From positions 44,937,446-45,001,445 of the forward strand of contig CM055095.1 in the NCBI GenBank assembly GCA_029204225.1: a stretch of 64,000 bases of DNA. Reading direction: 5' to 3'. Within the stretch, counting starts at the first letter, position 1. Each line of letters starts with the position of its first letter. The stretch is from Diphasiastrum complanatum (Eukaryota; Streptophyta; Lycopodiopsida; Lycopodiales; Lycopodiaceae). Both the position numbers and the translations under genes were made by a program. The notes beneath the pieces were generated by a model that was not told the origin of the DNA, ran no database searches, and worked only from the letters and a program-made list of their open reading frames with translations. Positions 485 through 39,332 of the stretch are shown here, piece by piece.

Positions 485-839
485 TAGCAGGAATGTCTTC
501 TACCATATTAAATGTCTTCAGCTTCTTCAAACTTGCAAAGTTGAGATGCCGAAACTTTGCGTGCCACAATTCAGCCAACTCCAATGATTGTGATGTAGAA
601 GCAACAAGACATGTAGAGGGAATTCGTCGCTCATAGGTATCCATAATGAATAAGCCAGCATGCATCGTTTCCGAAACAATAATTAAGAGAGATCTTTTAG
701 GATCCTTGACAAGACACTTATCTTCTTTGAACTCAACAACTAGTCCTTGCTTCAACATAGTTGAAACCGAAAGAAGATTCTTCTTGATTCCCGGAACATA
801 AAGCACATTCTTAATGTACTTTTCTTCACCATTAGGCAA
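414..839 (-). pseudogene. copia-1 pre-integrase (GAG_pre-integrs) segment
   Basis: This 141-codon frame has the hallmarks of the region between protease and integrase: VLYVPGIKKNLLSVSTML at the start and ELWHAKFRHLNFASLKKL in the middle, the diverged form of the usual LWHxRLGHxN motif. It overlaps the protease frame upstream in a different phase, so a frameshift separates them. The expected HxxC-type zinc ligands are incomplete. It is a decayed part of the gag-pol polyprotein rather than a separate gene. Confidence 0.78.
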
Positions 840-1713
840 AATGATGGATACAATTCCAATTCCATGAATAGAATAAGATGCATCATCCGCACATTGTCTT
901 TCACTAATTTAGTGAATGCTTCTTTGCGAGAAGTCATATGATGAGTAGCACCACTATCAATCACCCATTCAATGGGCTGAAAATCAGCAACTTGCAAAAC
1001 AGAATCTGAATTCCTCATAGATGTAGTAGTACTAGTAGAAGCAATATTAGACACAAAAGCATAGTCTTGGTTGAAGAGATCACCAGCACTAGTATCAATT
1101 CCTTTACTCTCCTCTTTCGCAAGCTTCTTCTTACAATCCTTGATGAAGTGCCCATACCTTTTGCAATAATGGCACTTCCCTTTCTTCTTTTGAGTGTTGA
1201 CATTTTGACCTCCAATGGGCTTTTGCTCATCCTTGGAAGGAGGATTCCCTTTTCCTTTTGACTTGCCTTTGCCCTTGCCTTTCGTGAAGAAAGCTTGATC
1301 TTGTTGAGTGTCACCCGCAAAGTTTTGCCTTGTTTGCTCCTCTTGAAGAAGCAGCCCAACAAGTTCATCAAAGGAGAGTTGTTGTCCCCTAAGAGAGATA
1401 CTCAAAGATGAAACAAATGGAAGATAAGATGAAGGTAATGAGTTGAGAGTAATGGAAACAAATTGAGCATCCTCAATTATCTCATCAATATTAAGAAGCT
1501 CCTCACAAAGATCCTTGATCTTCGTCAAGTGATTGGTCACTTGATCCCCTTCTTGCATCTTCAACAAAGAAAGCTGATTTCTAAGATACACAACTCTTGC
1601 TGGATTTTTTACTCTATACATAGTATAAAGTGTATCCCACGCACTTTTAGATGTCTTACAAGACCTAATATGAGATAAGATAGATCTTTTCACAGCAAGA
1701 GCAACCATAGAAT
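752..1713 (-). pseudogene. copia-1 gag C-terminus, zinc knuckle and protease active site
   Basis: This 318-codon frame begins just downstream of the TRIM insertion. Its first two thirds are the copia gag domain (AWDTLYTMYRVKN, then LLLQEEQTRQ). A lysine-rich linker leads to a CCHC zinc knuckle, CHYCKRYGHFIKDC, near 1131-1175, the RNA-binding motif of the nucleocapsid. The aspartic protease active site WVIDSGATHHMTS follows near 930-975 with the catalytic Asp intact. The frame then shifts into the pre-integrase segment. The N-terminal part of the same gag lies on the other side of the TRIM (2118-2372). Confidence 0.85.
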
Positions 1714-1857
1714 TGTTAGAAATCCATAAATCATAATATGGATGGACAGACTAGGATTCGAACCCAGGACCTCCCTCATACCGGATGGGATGCTCTATCA
1801 CTGAGCTATCTGCCCTGTTTGATAGTTCTCTCTAGAGTGTGGATTGATATTCCAACA
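1714..1857 (-). repeat. TRIM 3' LTR (144 bp)
   Basis: This matches the 1974-2117 copy base for base except at two sites (G/A at about 1817 against 2077, and G/A at about 1839 against 2099). Minus-strand termini are TG...CA. The purine tract at 1858-1868 abuts it on the internal side and the target duplication AGAAT flanks it at 1709-1713. Confidence 0.93.
1744..1815 (-). other. tRNA-like sequence in the TRIM 3' LTR
   Basis: These 72 nt on the minus strand fold as a tRNA cloverleaf. Acceptor arms GGGCAGA and TCTGTCC pair over seven bases (one G-U). The D stem is GCTC/GAGC and the T stem CTGGG/CCTAG (one G-U) closes the loop TTCGAAT. The Pol III A box (TAGCTCAGTGAT) and B box (GGTTCGAATCC) both look intact. 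The anticodon arm is irregular: it is about one base longer than normal, pairs imperfectly and gives no confident anticodon. I read it as a tRNA-derived promoter module, not a working tRNA. Confidence 0.8.
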
Positions 1858-1973
1858 CCCCCCCTCAAGCCACACTTGGTTGGGGTCCTAACTGTCACAT
1901 GCCCCACAACTTGGGCCACCTAACCATGGCTTTGACACCATGAATTGTTAGGTCTAACTTGGCTCTAATACCA
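1858..1973 (-). other. TRIM internal region with primer binding site and purine tract
   Basis: This 116-bp noncoding segment lies between the TRIM LTRs. On the minus strand it begins with the primer site (1973-1961) and ends with the purine tract (1868-1858), the two signals needed to prime minus- and plus-strand DNA synthesis. There is no open frame of note. Confidence 0.9.
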
Positions 1974-2117
1974 TGTTAGAAATCCATAAATCATAATATG
2001 GATGGACAGACTAGGATTCGAACCCAGGACCTCCCTCATACCGGATGGGATGCTCTATCACTGAGCTATCTGCCCTATTTGATAGTTCTCTCTAGAGTAT
2101 GGATTGATATTCCAACA
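1974..2117 (-). repeat. TRIM 5' LTR (144 bp)
   Basis: This is the upstream copy of the TRIM LTR, with minus-strand termini TG...CA. The tRNA-like module occupies 2004-2075. The target duplication AGAAT lies at 2118-2122. Confidence 0.93.
2004..2075 (-). other. tRNA-like sequence in the TRIM 5' LTR
   Basis: It is identical to the 1744-1815 copy by eye: the same acceptor, D and T stems, the same A and B boxes and the same irregular anticodon arm. If transcribed by Pol III it would start near the A box and run into the rest of the LTR and the primer site. Confidence 0.8.
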
Positions 2118-2372
2118 AGAATGTGCTTGTGCATCCCTTCTATCCCACTTCTTTTGTTCTTCCGAAGACGTAGAAGATGATGTTGATGATGATGATCCAC
2201 GAGGTGTAGGAGGTGCCAAAGACGGAGGCCTTTCCTCATCACCATTGACCAAATCCCACAGCCCTTTCGCTATGAGAAGATTCTTCATCATGTAACTCCA
2301 CAAGGAGTAGTTTGTGCCATCCAACCGATCTTCACTAAACAAAGAACCGATAGCTTCCAATTCTTTAGCCAT
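2118..2372 (-). pseudogene. copia-1 gag N-terminus
   Basis: The likely start is the Met at 2372 (MAKELEAIGSLFSEDRLDG), followed by DGTNYSLWSYMMKNLLIAKG, the N-terminal copia gag motif (family SNYxxWKxxMxxxL), and then WDLVNGDEE. A Ser/Asp-rich stretch leads to WDRRDAQAHS, where the TRIM target duplication begins. The remaining gag resumes at 1713. An in-frame Met 18 codons upstream (2426) is possible, but the family pattern favours 2372. Confidence 0.8.
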
Positions 2373-3083
2373 TACCTCCAACAAAATTTCAGCTTGTAGT
2401 AGATAGGAAAGAGAGTCTTTCCACAACCAAATCTACTCAAAAATTTGCAGCAAACAAAGAGCTGAAAGTAGGAGCACAAGATATCTTTCAATCTGCAACC
2501 AAAGTACCCAGAAGATAATGGAGATGGTTGTCTTTCTGCACAAAAAAACCAGCTTCTTGAAAATTAGGTTAGCTTCGATTGAAGCCTACACTGAAACCCA
2601 ATTAGGAAGCCAAATAGTGTGATCAACACACACTCCAATAGGGTTGTTGAAAGCACCCTACTACTTGCTGAGAATTTGCAAATTTCCAGCCACAAGTTGA
2701 CCTAACCCTGAATAAGGTTTGCTGAATTTTGGGCGCGCGCCCTCCTACACAAATGCAAACCTGAAAACAAAAACAGCAAGATAGGGAGACACCACAACCA
2801 AAAATCAGTTGCAGATTTTTGGGCGCCCTCCTCCAAACAAAACTTGCTACTGGTTGCATAAAAATCAGATTTGAGATTCTGATTTTTGGGTGCCAGAAAT
2901 TGCTCCTCCTCGATCTCTGATGGCCGCCCTCCTTCAACTTGAAAAGAGACAAAAAAGCTGATCCAAACTCCACTTGAAAAGATCAGCAAGATGCAGAAAT
3001 TTCACAACAAAAAGCAGAGAAGCTCCTCTTCTGGTAGGGCGCCAACAAACAAGCTTGTTGCAGATCTGGTAGCTCTGATACCA
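2373..3083 (-). other. copia-1 leader between primer site and gag
   Basis: This is the untranslated leader expected in a copia element. The primer site TGGTATCAGAGC lies at 3083-3072. The decamer-like motif AGGAGGGCG(C) (minus strand) recurs, near 2732-2744, 2822-2832 and 2923-2933. Open frames here are low-complexity and do not resemble known proteins. Confidence 0.6.
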
Positions 3084-3607
3084 TGTAGGAAAGCAAGAGA
3101 CGAGTCACCAAGATCTAGTTATCAATCAATCTCCACAAGAAACAAGAGAGAAGAGGCTGGGTGCCCAACTCTAAGAGAGAGAGAGAGAGAGAGAAAACAG
3201 CAACAAGAGCAATGGAGAGCCAAACTGTATAAAATGGAATACACAATGAGCATCTAAGTACTCTACCTGGATGTGGCCAAATGCCACCAAACCCTAAGGT
3301 TAACCACTTACTAAGTGTAGGGCACCCCCAAAAGTCAAGATAGGGCCCCTAAACAAAATTAGACCCCTAAGGACCCACGAGTCAGTACATGACCAAAATT
3401 GGGTCCAACTGAACTTAAGACGATGGCCTAAATAACTAAATACCCATGGTTACACATCTCGACCTTTGGGTCAAAGTAACCTATGGATTAACTTCAGCAT
3501 AGTCATTTATTTCTAAAAAATGTAATACAATAGCACTCTACCAATGAGCTTTGAGAGCTTATATGCTAACATAAACTTATTTACATCAAAAATCACAAAT
3601 ATCAACA
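3084..3607 (-). repeat. copia-1 5' LTR
   Basis: The internal edge is firm, because TGTAGGAAAG (plus strand) directly follows the primer site complement at 3072-3083. The outer edge is a guess: the first suitable ...TCAACA is at 3602-3607, giving 524 bp. It contains a short GA repeat (about 3176-3196). The partner LTR is outside the window, so length and target duplication cannot be checked. Confidence 0.55.
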
Positions 3608-6844: not shown

Positions 6845-7164
6845 TGACAAATTCCAAGGCCTAGCTATGGAGTATCATAACAGCATAGTAAGCACACTAT
6901 CAAAGCTTGAAAAAACCAGCTATGGAGTAGAAGACAAAAATGGGCTACTTTTAGCGTGTAATCTATAGAGGTGGTGTCTTGCTAATTCTAGCTCTAGAAC
7001 CCACATGGGTCCTCAACCTACTTGTTATTACTTGCCTAATTAGCACAAGTGGGGTGTACAGTAGTGTACTATGTACATAAATGTTTTACCCCCATGTCTT
7101 ATGCACAACTTACAAGTTAAAAGTATACAAGCCTTAAGGGGCAAAATAGGCATTTATTTCAACA
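6845..7164 (-). repeat. copia-2 3' LTR (320 bp, internal deletion)
   Basis: It is colinear with 8985-9374 but lacks an internal block of roughly 80 bp that in the other copy starts GAGCAAGAGAGAG. Elsewhere it differs by a few bases. Plus-strand ends are TGACAA...TTCAACA. Confidence 0.9.
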
Positions 7165-7371
7165 CCCCCCCGCAATGGCTATTTTGTTCATACCAACACC
7201 TAGCATGCTACGGAACTTTTCAAATTTTCCTTTACTAGACTATCCAACTTTCTATAAGTTACATAGAAAGAATAAGGTACCTCCAATATGTCAAGTTGGG
7301 GTACTTAATGTCACAATTAGGCCTAGTGGACCCATGAGTCCCTACCAAATTAATTTCATACTAACTTAGGC

Positions 7372-37616: not shown

Positions 37617-39332
37617 TTAGTTTGAGTTTGAGGTCATAAGCTGTATGCCACTATTGATGTCTTTATAACCATCAATGGGCAGGCAACGTTGGATATAAGG
37701 AACCTCCGAGGAGATGCTTTTCCCATTTGTATCAGGATCGTGTGGGCAATTGTATACTTCTGGACCCATCTGGTAACAAACATCCACGGTCTGACCTCTC
37801 AAGCAATTTGGAGCTTTAGTCTTATTCTCAGAGTTAAAATTAATGAACCAAGGAATGAGAGCTCCGTAACCTTGAGCCACTCCTCCAAATGTAGATGTTG
37901 GGGTTACAATCAGATCATCCGCATAGCTAAGCAAAAGCATTTCCGCTAGAGCTTGTTTATCCTCCTCCAAGTTTATACTCTGGTACATGTTGAAGCTTAG
38001 CTGTATCACAGCAACATCCTCTCCCCCAACGGTGGGATAATGCAAATATGTCTCCTGTAAGCGATCATGCAAGCTGGGGAAAAGTGATGCAACAAATGCC
38101 TTGATGGTAAAAGCACGAGTATAAAGGGATGAAGAAGACAAACCCCCGCCCTGATAATCAGGAACAGGAAGAAGGCCGTTCTCTATAGTGCACTGCTGTA
38201 TCCGAGCCTCAATCTCATTGCCCATGGACACGTAGTGCTCATAACCTTCCCTGTAACGGACCTGGATTCCAACCGTGCGATCTGAATCTCGTAAATAGGC
38301 CTTCCTTGCCCTCAGCACTCTTGCCCATATAGGGTCTGCTGGAAGCATGACGGTTCGCAGCAAACGTGTTAAAGCCATGTGGTCAGGAAACAGTGCTTCC
38401 AACACTGGCCTGTACTGGGGAACACTGTACAGCCTCGGTAAAAAATACAAACACCCAGCCAGAAAAACCCACGGTATGTCCTCAGCTTGATTGAGTTCCG
38501 TGGAACAAAAAAATCGGCTGCTTGGAGCTTCATACGTTTCGCCAGACTTGACAGCGTACAAACCTGTGGAGTTGACGACTTTATCTTTAGGTGATCTTAC
38601 AGTGTGACTGAAAATTTTGTCCTCGGAGCTCCAAAGGTCGGGGCTTTGGTCGGGCATAGGGAACTCTTCAGGAAGCCTCCATGAGGATTGGTAAAAGGGC
38701 TCGCACATAATATCTGGAATGAAGGTCTGGCTTGGAATTAGCATCACTCTCTGTGTCATAATTGCATATAGAAACGTAGAGACAAAACTCAGGATTTTAT
38801 TTCCCAATCCTAAATTTGTATGTGCAATCACAAATTTGCAAGCTGAAGAATGATTTTTACTCAGGAAATAGCTTGTAACATTTCCAATTTTGTGGATGCA
38901 AGCGTGATGCAATTTTGTGTACTCTGATAAAACTGATTCCCATTCAACATTTCTTCCCAGATTCTGGGCATGTTTCCTTTCAGAGTAGAACCCAGCTAAC
39001 TCAGATCGACTTCGACATGGATTCTTTTCGCTCCACGCAGGATCTGCTTCTATTTGGGCGGAGTTTTCCGCTGCCCACGCAGTGCCATTCTGCAAGGCTT
39101 CAATCAGTGTTTGAACAAAAGCTGAAATGTTATGATGGACCACTATTTGGGATTCAGAAAGCCGAGAAAAATAGTCTCCACGAATGGGTGGGTATGAAGG
39201 GCCAATACAAAGGAAAGAAGACAGCAACATGATCACTAGCAGTCCTCCAGCAAGCACCAGCAAAGGGACTACCAAAAACCCAGAATTGACATGAGTGCCT
39301 CCGTTCTTTCTCTTGAATGTTCTCATTAGCAT
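37617..39332 (-). CDS. GT37 xyloglucan-type alpha-1,2-fucosyltransferase
   Basis: This intact, intronless 571-codon gene encodes a Golgi type II membrane enzyme that moves fucose from GDP-fucose to a cell-wall glycan; xyloglucan galactose is the classic acceptor of the family. A short basic tail (residues 1-17) precedes one membrane anchor (about 18-45). The GT37 motifs are HTNLGLGNKIL (171-181), VGIQVRYREGY (354-364), the donor-binding region, and LIVTPTSTFGGVAQGYG (474-490). NxS/T sites occur at about 68, 82, 151, 160, 254 and 503. Its length is close to Arabidopsis FUT1 (558). The start MLMRTFKRKN has a second Met two codons in; either may be used. Arabinogalactan or another acceptor is possible, since GT37 members differ in substrate. 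Retrotransposons flank it on both sides but do not touch the frame. Confidence 0.93.
   Translation of the reverse strand: MLMRTFKRKNGGTHVNSGFLVVPLLVLAGGLLVIMLLSSFLCIGPSYPPIRGDYFSRLSESQIVVHHNISAFVQTLIEALQNGTAWAAENSAQIEADPAWSEKNPCRSRSELAGFYSERKHAQNLGRNVEWESVLSEYTKLHHACIHKIGNVTSYFLSKNHSSACKFVIAHTNLGLGNKILSFVSTFLYAIMTQRVMLIPSQTFIPDIMCEPFYQSSWRLPEEFPMPDQSPDLWSSEDKIFSHTVRSPKDKVVNSTGLYAVKSGETYEAPSSRFFCSTELNQAEDIPWVFLAGCLYFLPRLYSVPQYRPVLEALFPDHMALTRLLRTVMLPADPIWARVLRARKAYLRDSDRTVGIQVRYREGYEHYVSMGNEIEARIQQCTIENGLLPVPDYQGGGLSSSSLYTRAFTIKAFVASLFPSLHDRLQETYLHYPTVGGEDVAVIQLSFNMYQSINLEEDKQALAEMLLLSYADDLIVTPTSTFGGVAQGYGALIPWFINFNSENKTKAPNCLRGQTVDVCYQMGPEVYNCPHDPDTNGKSISSEVPYIQRCLPIDGYKDINSGIQLMTSNSN

What the first reader, a model, noticed from the sequence alone, without database searches (positions are those of the whole stretch)
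1714..2117. A TRIM whose LTRs carry a tRNA-like Pol III unit
The 404-bp element has every structural mark of a TRIM: paired 144-bp LTRs, primer site, purine tract and AGAAT target duplication. Each LTR also holds a 72-nt tRNA-like sequence with good acceptor, D and T stems and intact A and B boxes. Cassandra TRIMs carry 5S rRNA genes in their LTRs; this looks like an independent case using a tRNA. A Pol III promoter inside an LTR would let the element make RNA without a Pol II promoter, and the same LTR could seed SINE-like transcripts.
Basis: partly seen in the sequence, partly recalled or inferred. Interest (0 to 1): 0.88.

Follow-up and report, generated by a model that had tools for sequence, protein, structure and literature searches.

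The report
tRNA-bearing mini-retrotransposon and its copia partner
A tiny, gene-less jumping element, probably of a clubmoss, carries a tRNA-like promoter in each of its ends, as a group named Helenus does in other organisms, and fused copies in the genome point to the full-sized retrotransposon whose copying machinery it shares.

Summary
The 404-bp element is real: 144-bp LTRs (2 differences), iMet-type primer site, purine tract, AGAAT target duplication, and a 73-nt tRNA-like unit (Rfam tRNA, 49.2 bits) in each LTR, all reading on the minus strand. The host is probably the clubmoss Diphasiastrum complanatum. The family is dispersed: 22 of 30 loci (19 of 27 without duplicated places) have a perfect 5-bp duplication. 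A second family, F2, shares only the tRNA-like part of the LTR.

The kind is not new: Kojima (2024) named tRNA-bearing TRIMs 'Helenus'; the only plant listed was Selaginella.

New here: the autonomous partner. At 40 of 40 scored places the TRIM LTR is joined, at the LTR|PBS boundary, to the copia in which the window's TRIM sits; 21 of 40 scored places show the reciprocal joint. Twelve carry both, in two reciprocal orders. Six of seven composites tested have one flanking 5-bp duplication. For F2, with the same PBS, no such joint appeared among 40 scored candidates. Best reading: TRIM and copia RNA share particles, and plus-strand DNA transfers between them through the common primer site. Pol III transcription remains inferred.

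The parts
1709..1713 (.). target site duplication AGAAT (3' side in element sense)
1714..1857 (-). 3' LTR (144 bp, TG...CA)
1743..1815 (-). tRNA-like unit in 3' LTR
   Evidence: RF00005, 49.2 bits
1798..1808 (-). A box TAGCTCAGTGA in 3' LTR (one base off the majority TAGCTCAGTGG)
   Evidence: sequence
1754..1764 (-). B box GGTTCGAATCC in 3' LTR
   Evidence: sequence
1858..1869 (-). polypurine tract CTTGAGGGGGGG
   Evidence: sequence
1858..1973 (-). internal region, 116 bp, too short to code for a protein
1961..1973 (-). primer binding site TGGTATTAGAGCC (iMet type; TGGTATCAGAGCC in most copies)
   Evidence: the tRNA assignment is recalled knowledge
1974..2117 (-). 5' LTR (144 bp)
2003..2075 (-). 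tRNA-like unit in 5' LTR
2058..2068 (-). A box in 5' LTR (TAGCTCAGTGA)
   Evidence: sequence
2014..2024 (-). B box in 5' LTR (GGTTCGAATCC)
   Evidence: sequence
2118..2122 (.). target site duplication AGAAT (5' side in element sense)
3084..3518 (-). 5' LTR of the partner copia (435 bp; its 3' LTR of 440 bp lies outside the window, about L045:4726-5163)
2118..3083 (-). PBS, leader and start of gag of the partner copia; the same stretch is fused to TRIM LTRs elsewhere
752..1708 (-). gag-side ORF of the partner copia (Retrotran_gag_2, Pol_BBD) downstream of the TRIM insertion

Best explanation
It is a Helenus-type TRIM (a TRIM with a tRNA-derived Pol III-like promoter in each LTR). It does not encode proteins and is copied by a specific Ty1/copia family, one copy of which it has landed in. 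SHOWN by sequence: family structure, TSDs, and TRIM-copia fusions joined at the LTR|PBS boundary in both reciprocal orders, six of the seven tested bearing one TSD round the whole. INFERRED: RNA starts at the tRNA-like unit in the 5' LTR and runs through to the 3' LTR or beyond; it is packaged with copia RNA; both are primed by initiator tRNA-Met; the copia RT and integrase copy and insert it. Because TRIM and copia have the same PBS, plus-strand strong-stop DNA (LTR+PBS) of one can transfer onto the minus strand of the other, giving LTR(TRIM)-copia-LTR(copia)-TRIM-LTR(TRIM) and the reciprocal form; the same transfer between two TRIM molecules would give the tandem arrays.
For: Family: 49 near-full-length matches, some overlapping inside arrays; 22 of 30 loci with a perfect 5-bp TSD, 19 of 27 without duplicated places; at least two tRNA calls in 44 of 44 loci scanned, 39 distinct places. 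Fusions: 40 of 40 scored places span TRIM LTR|copia PBS (27 after leaving out 10 in two C5 clusters and 3 on small contigs; other duplicates not checked); 21 of 40 scored span copia LTR|TRIM PBS; 12 places carry both, 4 with the joints 261-262 bp apart and 8 with them 2.5-9.4 kb apart in the reciprocal order. Joints read or aligned to the base in L031, L034, L067, L068. One 5-bp TSD round the composite in 6 of 7 tested: TAGAT, GTGCT, GTTAT, GACTG, TATCT, GATAC (for the last two only the ends were read). L010 has a copia LTR start at its left and a TRIM LTR end at its right, with TSD GTTAT. Control: F2 has the same PBS, but the 11 places spanning an F2 LTR|copia probe are all F1 places at 82-85%, none an F2 place, among 40 scored of 1542 candidates. 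Of 92 F1 LTRs reaching their end in 40 loci (a few duplicated), 49 are followed by the TRIM internal region, 41 by flank, 2 by this copia and 0 by PBS plus another element. Between F1 and F2 the tRNA-like unit is the conserved LTR part (0 of 1000 shuffles reach the score; flanks 218 and 986 of 1000).
Against: No transcript data: Pol III use is untested, and one A box base is changed in the window copy. Within F1 the tRNA-like unit varies MORE than the rest of the LTR: 37 of 49 variable columns lie in it, about half the length. No TTTT terminator in F1 (35 of 35 internal regions and 63 of 64 LTRs lack it), though 1234 of 2000 shuffles also lack one. One composite (C21) had no TSD at the predicted ends. 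Each genome search scored only 40 candidates, so rates and totals are unknown, and fusions with other copias or with F2 could lie below the cut. Fusions show shared reverse transcription, not that this copia's integrase makes the simple insertions.
Confidence: 0.8

Rival explanations
1. Composites arose after integration by homologous recombination between neighbouring TRIM and copia insertions, so they say nothing about co-packaging.
For: This is the usual origin of complex elements according to PMC1950507. C21 lacks a TSD. Two clusters on C5 look like local duplication.
Against: No LTR similarity between TRIM and copia was reported when the copia LTR region and the TRIM LTR were compared with the window; the tract they share at the joint is the PBS. 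6 of 7 composites tested have one TSD round the whole. F2 with the same PBS gave none among 40 scored.
Confidence: 0.1
2. The real helper is another copia family; this one is an occasional companion in the particle.
For: Co-packaging is seen only where it leaves a fusion; many plant copia families use an iMet-type PBS (recalled).
Against: In the loci fetched with TRIM queries, 3 of 3 heterotypic composites (L010, L028, L034) involve this copia, and 0 of 92 LTRs run into PBS plus another element. The copia has many close copies: 40 of 40 scored at 98-100% over its 3' end.
Confidence: 0.2
3. The tRNA-like unit is a passive relic and the TRIM is transcribed by Pol II like its helper.
For: No expression data; window A box changed; no terminator; unit more variable than the rest within F1.
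Against: The unit is the conserved LTR part between F1 and F2; B box exact in 54 and A box in 45 of 64 LTRs.
Confidence: 0.3
4. An ordinary tRNA gene or SINE flanked by chance repeats.
For: Rfam and ARAGORN call tRNA.
Against: Same LTR-internal-LTR architecture with perfect 5-bp TSDs in 22 of 30 loci; no SINE-like tail seen by eye.
Confidence: 0.01

Closest known systems
Helenus (Kojima 2024, PMC10886601), esp. Helenus-1_SMo of Selaginella moellendorffii
   Same: TRIM with tRNA-like unit in each LTR, PBS, PPT, 5-bp TSD in plants; LTR 120 / internal 85 bp in Selaginella against 144 / 116 here; tandem arrays also reported for a fish family
   Different: Different lycophyte order (if the host is Diphasiastrum); partner copia identified by fusions, whereas the fungal partner was inferred from PBS and internal-region similarity; most fungal families use an anticodon-loop PBS. 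Sequence relation to Helenus-1_SMo not tested (no sequence available here).
Cassandra
   Same: TRIM with Pol III gene sequence in LTR, PBS TGGTATCAGAGC, tandem arrays (PMC7215508, passages)
   Different: 5S rRNA, not tRNA
Template-switch complexes in Triticeae (Sabot and Schulman 2007, PMC1950507)
   Same: three LTRs, two cores, one flanking 5-bp TSD; attributed to co-packaging
   Different: there between similar elements of one family, with the switch proposed in R; here between a TRIM and its presumed helper, joined at the PBS
OsajRetroS10 / OsajLTRA10 and other TRIM-partner pairs (Gao et al. 2016, PMC4717578)
   Same: TRIM linked to an autonomous copia
   Different: linked by LTR and internal homology; here the LTRs are unlike and the link is physical fusion

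Membership tests
Helenus | short non-coding element with two LTRs (TRIM) | tested here: met
   404 bp, 144-bp LTRs
Helenus | tRNA-like sequence inside each LTR | tested here: met
   RF00005 49.2 bits in both LTRs; at least two tRNA calls in 44 of 44 loci (39 places)
Helenus | PBS after 5' LTR and PPT before 3' LTR | tested here: met
Helenus | 5-bp TSD (plants, fungi) | tested here: met
   22 of 30 loci perfect; 19 of 27 without duplicated places
Helenus | conserved A (TRGCY..) and B (GGTTC) boxes | tested here: met
   A box exact 45 of 64, GGTTC 59 of 64; window A box one base off
Helenus | transcription by Pol III | not testable with these tools
   no RNA data; stated as not validated for Helenus in PMC10886601
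Helenus | sequence kinship with Helenus-1_SMo | not testable with these tools
   Repbase and the paper's supplement could not be looked up
Cassandra | 5S rRNA sequence in LTR | tested here: not met
   only RF00005 reaches its gathering score in the window
SINE | no LTRs; A-rich or LINE-like tail; TPRT-type duplications | tested here: not met
   paired LTRs and 5-bp TSD
template-switch complex (Sabot and Schulman) | internal LTR, two cores, flanking TSD, alike outer LTRs | tested here: met
   C4:71314 composite: copia LTR, TRIM core, TRIM LTR, copia core, copia LTR with GACTG on both sides; the outer LTRs were read only in part

The most novel reading that the evidence does not exclude
Parasite and helper have become heritable units: composites in which a tRNA-bearing (Pol III-type) LTR stands directly in front of a copia gag-pol region have themselves spread, so that some of the 27 dispersed TRIM-LTR|copia places are offspring of a fused lineage rather than separate accidents. 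The Pol III LTR would then have been captured as a 5' LTR by a coding retrotransposon.
Probability: 0.18. Interest if true: 0.85.

Novelty: new member of a known kind. Interest (0 to 1): 0.58.

Why it matters
Who mobilises TRIMs, above all those with Pol III promoters, is mostly unknown: Gao et al. 2016 found no coding partner for 278 of 289 plant TRIM subfamilies (passages), and Kojima 2024 states there is no indication for Cassandra. Where LTR homology is absent, a homology search cannot find the partner. Reciprocal heterodimers joined at the shared PBS give a genomic read-out of which two RNAs met in one particle. The search can be repeated in any assembled genome, and F2 serves as an internal negative control. 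It also extends Helenus to a second lycophyte order, if the host is Diphasiastrum.

Tried and rejected
Ordinary tRNA/SINE with chance repeats: rejected. tRNA-like unit as primer: its 3' end does not match the PBS (by eye). Lack of TTTT as evidence of selection: rejected, 1234 of 2000 shuffles also lack it. Excess conservation of the tRNA-like unit within F1: not found, rather the reverse (37 of 49 variable columns). Fold energy as evidence: weak. Parent tRNA of the unit: not determined. Helper of F2: unknown; no hit of this copia's LTR, leader or gag in 19 F2 loci with about 1.5 kb of flank each side. Duplicated places were found only on checking: F1 pairs L005/L007, L009/L024, L016/L022; F2 pairs L049/L050, L051/L055, L052/L054, L062/L063. 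Duplicates among the junction places were not checked.

Full report
OBSERVATION. The window holds two 144-nt direct repeats, 1714-1857 and 1974-2117, with two differences, flanked by AGAAT. ARAGORN and Rfam place a 73-nt tRNA-like unit in each, minus strand, 49.2 bits against a gathering score of 29. On the minus strand the order is LTR, TGGTATTAGAGCC, the rest of a 116-bp internal region, a purine tract ending in seven Gs, LTR, so the tRNA-like unit has the sense of the element. Acceptor, D and T stems pair in the fold; the anticodon arm folds only as a bulged stem, and 23 of 200 shuffles fold at least as well.

HOST. The fucosyltransferase-like ORF 37617-39332 has relatives in lycophytes, mosses and liverworts; one hit, P0022, is a Diphasiastrum complanatum protein on a contig of 51,472,129 bp, exactly the length of contig C15 of the window's genome. 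The host is therefore probably this clubmoss.

FAMILY. The genome search gave 52 matches, 49 of them nearly full length at 93-100% (some overlap inside arrays), from 40 scored of 1202 first-look candidates. In the 30 loci fetched, 22 have a perfect 5-bp duplication, 19 different sequences; three pairs of loci are duplicates of one place, which leaves 19 of 27. In 29 of 30 the two LTRs differ by 0-6 of 144 bases; in L015 an indel spoils the ungapped count. These are the best matches to the window copy, so age is biased to young. Each of 44 loci scanned (39 distinct places) has at least two tRNA calls, mostly tRNA-Thr(ggt), some Ile, Pro or Arg. Homotypic tandem arrays occur, with five LTRs in L008. 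In 64 LTRs the A box is exact in 45 and the B box in 54. Within the family the tRNA-like part is more variable than the rest: 37 of 49 variable columns.

SECOND FAMILY. Beside one array (L012) lies another TRIM, F2: LTR about 153 bp, internal 73 bp, the same PBS, its own PPT. 13 of 19 loci have perfect 5-bp TSDs, 10 of 15 without duplicated places. F1 and F2 LTRs are alike only over the tRNA-like unit (0 of 1000 shuffles reach the score; 5' flank 218 and 3' flank 986 of 1000). F2 has a TTTT in 32 of 36 LTRs, near the LTR end; F1 has none in 63 of 64. An F1 array sits inside an F2 LTR with TSD GTGGT.

PARTNER. The window TRIM lies in a copia: 5' LTR 3084-3518, gag-side ORF 752-1708 (Retrotran_gag_2, Pol_BBD), and, outside the window in L045, ORFs with SH3_retrovirus and RVT_2 and a 3' LTR, with ACATT on both sides of the whole. 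The ORF in the place of RNase H gave no Pfam hit. TRIM and copia share the PBS. Three of the loci found with TRIM queries turned out to be fusions with this copia. L028: TSD TAGAT, TRIM LTR, about 1.3 kb of copia from its PBS into gag, last 41 nt of the TRIM internal region, LTR, internal, LTR, TSD TAGAT. L034: about 1.06 kb of copia from its PBS into gag between TRIM LTRs in an array with TSD GTGCT. L010: 34 nt of the copia LTR start, last part of the TRIM internal region, LTR, internal, LTR (part missing), with TSD GTTAT. A probe across TRIM LTR|copia PBS matched across the joint at all 40 scored candidates of 1985; 10 lie in two clusters on C5 and 3 on small contigs, leaving 27, among which duplicates were not checked. 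A probe across copia LTR|TRIM PBS matched across the joint at 21 of 40 scored of 2612; the other 19 are ordinary copia LTR and PBS. Cross-matching gives 12 places with both joints: 4 as copia LTR-TRIM core-TRIM LTR-copia core (joints 261-262 bp apart) and 8 as TRIM LTR-copia-copia LTR-TRIM (2.5-9.4 kb apart). One of the first kind was read in large part (L067-L070): its copia region aligns to the window copia from leader to 3' end, in several ORFs, and ends in the copia LTR, with GACTG on both sides. Of three of the second kind whose ends were read, two have a TSD (TATCT, GATAC; the first with TC for TG at the left end) and one has not. In all, 6 of 7 composites tested have one TSD.

CONTROL. 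If the shared PBS alone caused the joints by genomic recombination, F2 should show them too. A probe joining F2 LTR and copia found 11 spanning places, all of them F1 places already listed, at 82-85%, and no F2 place, among 40 scored of 1542 candidates. A true F2 joint should have ranked above these, but the cap leaves room for misses. Among 92 F1 LTRs reaching their end in 40 loci, 49 continue into the TRIM internal region, 41 into flank, 2 into this copia and none into PBS plus something else.

MECHANISM. Shown: the fusions, their joints and the TSDs as counted. Inferred: TRIM RNA and copia RNA in one particle, priming by initiator tRNA-Met (recalled identity of the PBS), plus-strand transfer between molecules through the PBS copy, insertion by the copia integrase. 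The L010 insert, with a copia left end and a TRIM right end, suggests one integrase accepts both. Pol III transcription is the natural reading of the tRNA-like unit but has no direct support here.

KNOWN WORK. Kojima 2024 (PMC10886601; abstract, parts 1-4 of 6 and the figure and table section read; not the conclusions) defines Helenus; the only plant is Selaginella moellendorffii. My searches for Helenus, tRNA-bearing TRIMs and Diphasiastrum repeats listed no other such report in the held library; most subscription papers are not held. Sabot and Schulman 2007 (abstract and results section read) describe TSD-flanked complexes by template switching. Gao et al. 2016 (passages) report tandem TRIMs in 129 subfamilies and no coding partner for 278 of 289. 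Kalendar 2020 and the 2024 Cassandra paper were seen in passages.

VERDICT. Observation confirmed; the kind is known; the partner assignment by reciprocal, PBS-joined, mostly TSD-flanked heterodimers with a matched negative family is the new part.

Noticed in passing
L012:1905-2253 and L047-L066: Second tRNA-bearing TRIM family F2 in the same genome, LTR about 153 bp, internal 73 bp, TTTT near LTR end.
   Followed up: yes
L012:2262-2330 (-) and 2498-2685 (+): Diverged tRNA-like / F1-LTR-like pieces beside the F1 array, perhaps older Helenus relics.
   Followed up: partly
G000:C5:65.19-65.69 Mb and C5:37.75-37.97 Mb: Local clusters of 7 and 3 TRIM-LTR|copia junctions at 90-92%, perhaps local duplication of one composite.
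   Followed up: no
window 7155-7175: PPT-LTR-like boundary of another element (TTGCGGGGGGG/TGTTGAAATA on the minus strand) is 90% like the TRIM's; a possible relative of the source of F1.
   Followed up: no
L064 left flank: F2 insertion lies exactly next to a reverse-oriented PBS-like sequence (GCTCTGATACCA).
   Followed up: partly
window 37617-39332: Long fucosyltransferase-like ORF (PF03254) of 571 aa amid retrotransposons.
   Followed up: partly
window 3514-3518: The 5' LTR of the copia starts TTTTAG where the 3' LTR starts TGTTAG; its two LTRs are 94% alike.
   Followed up: partly
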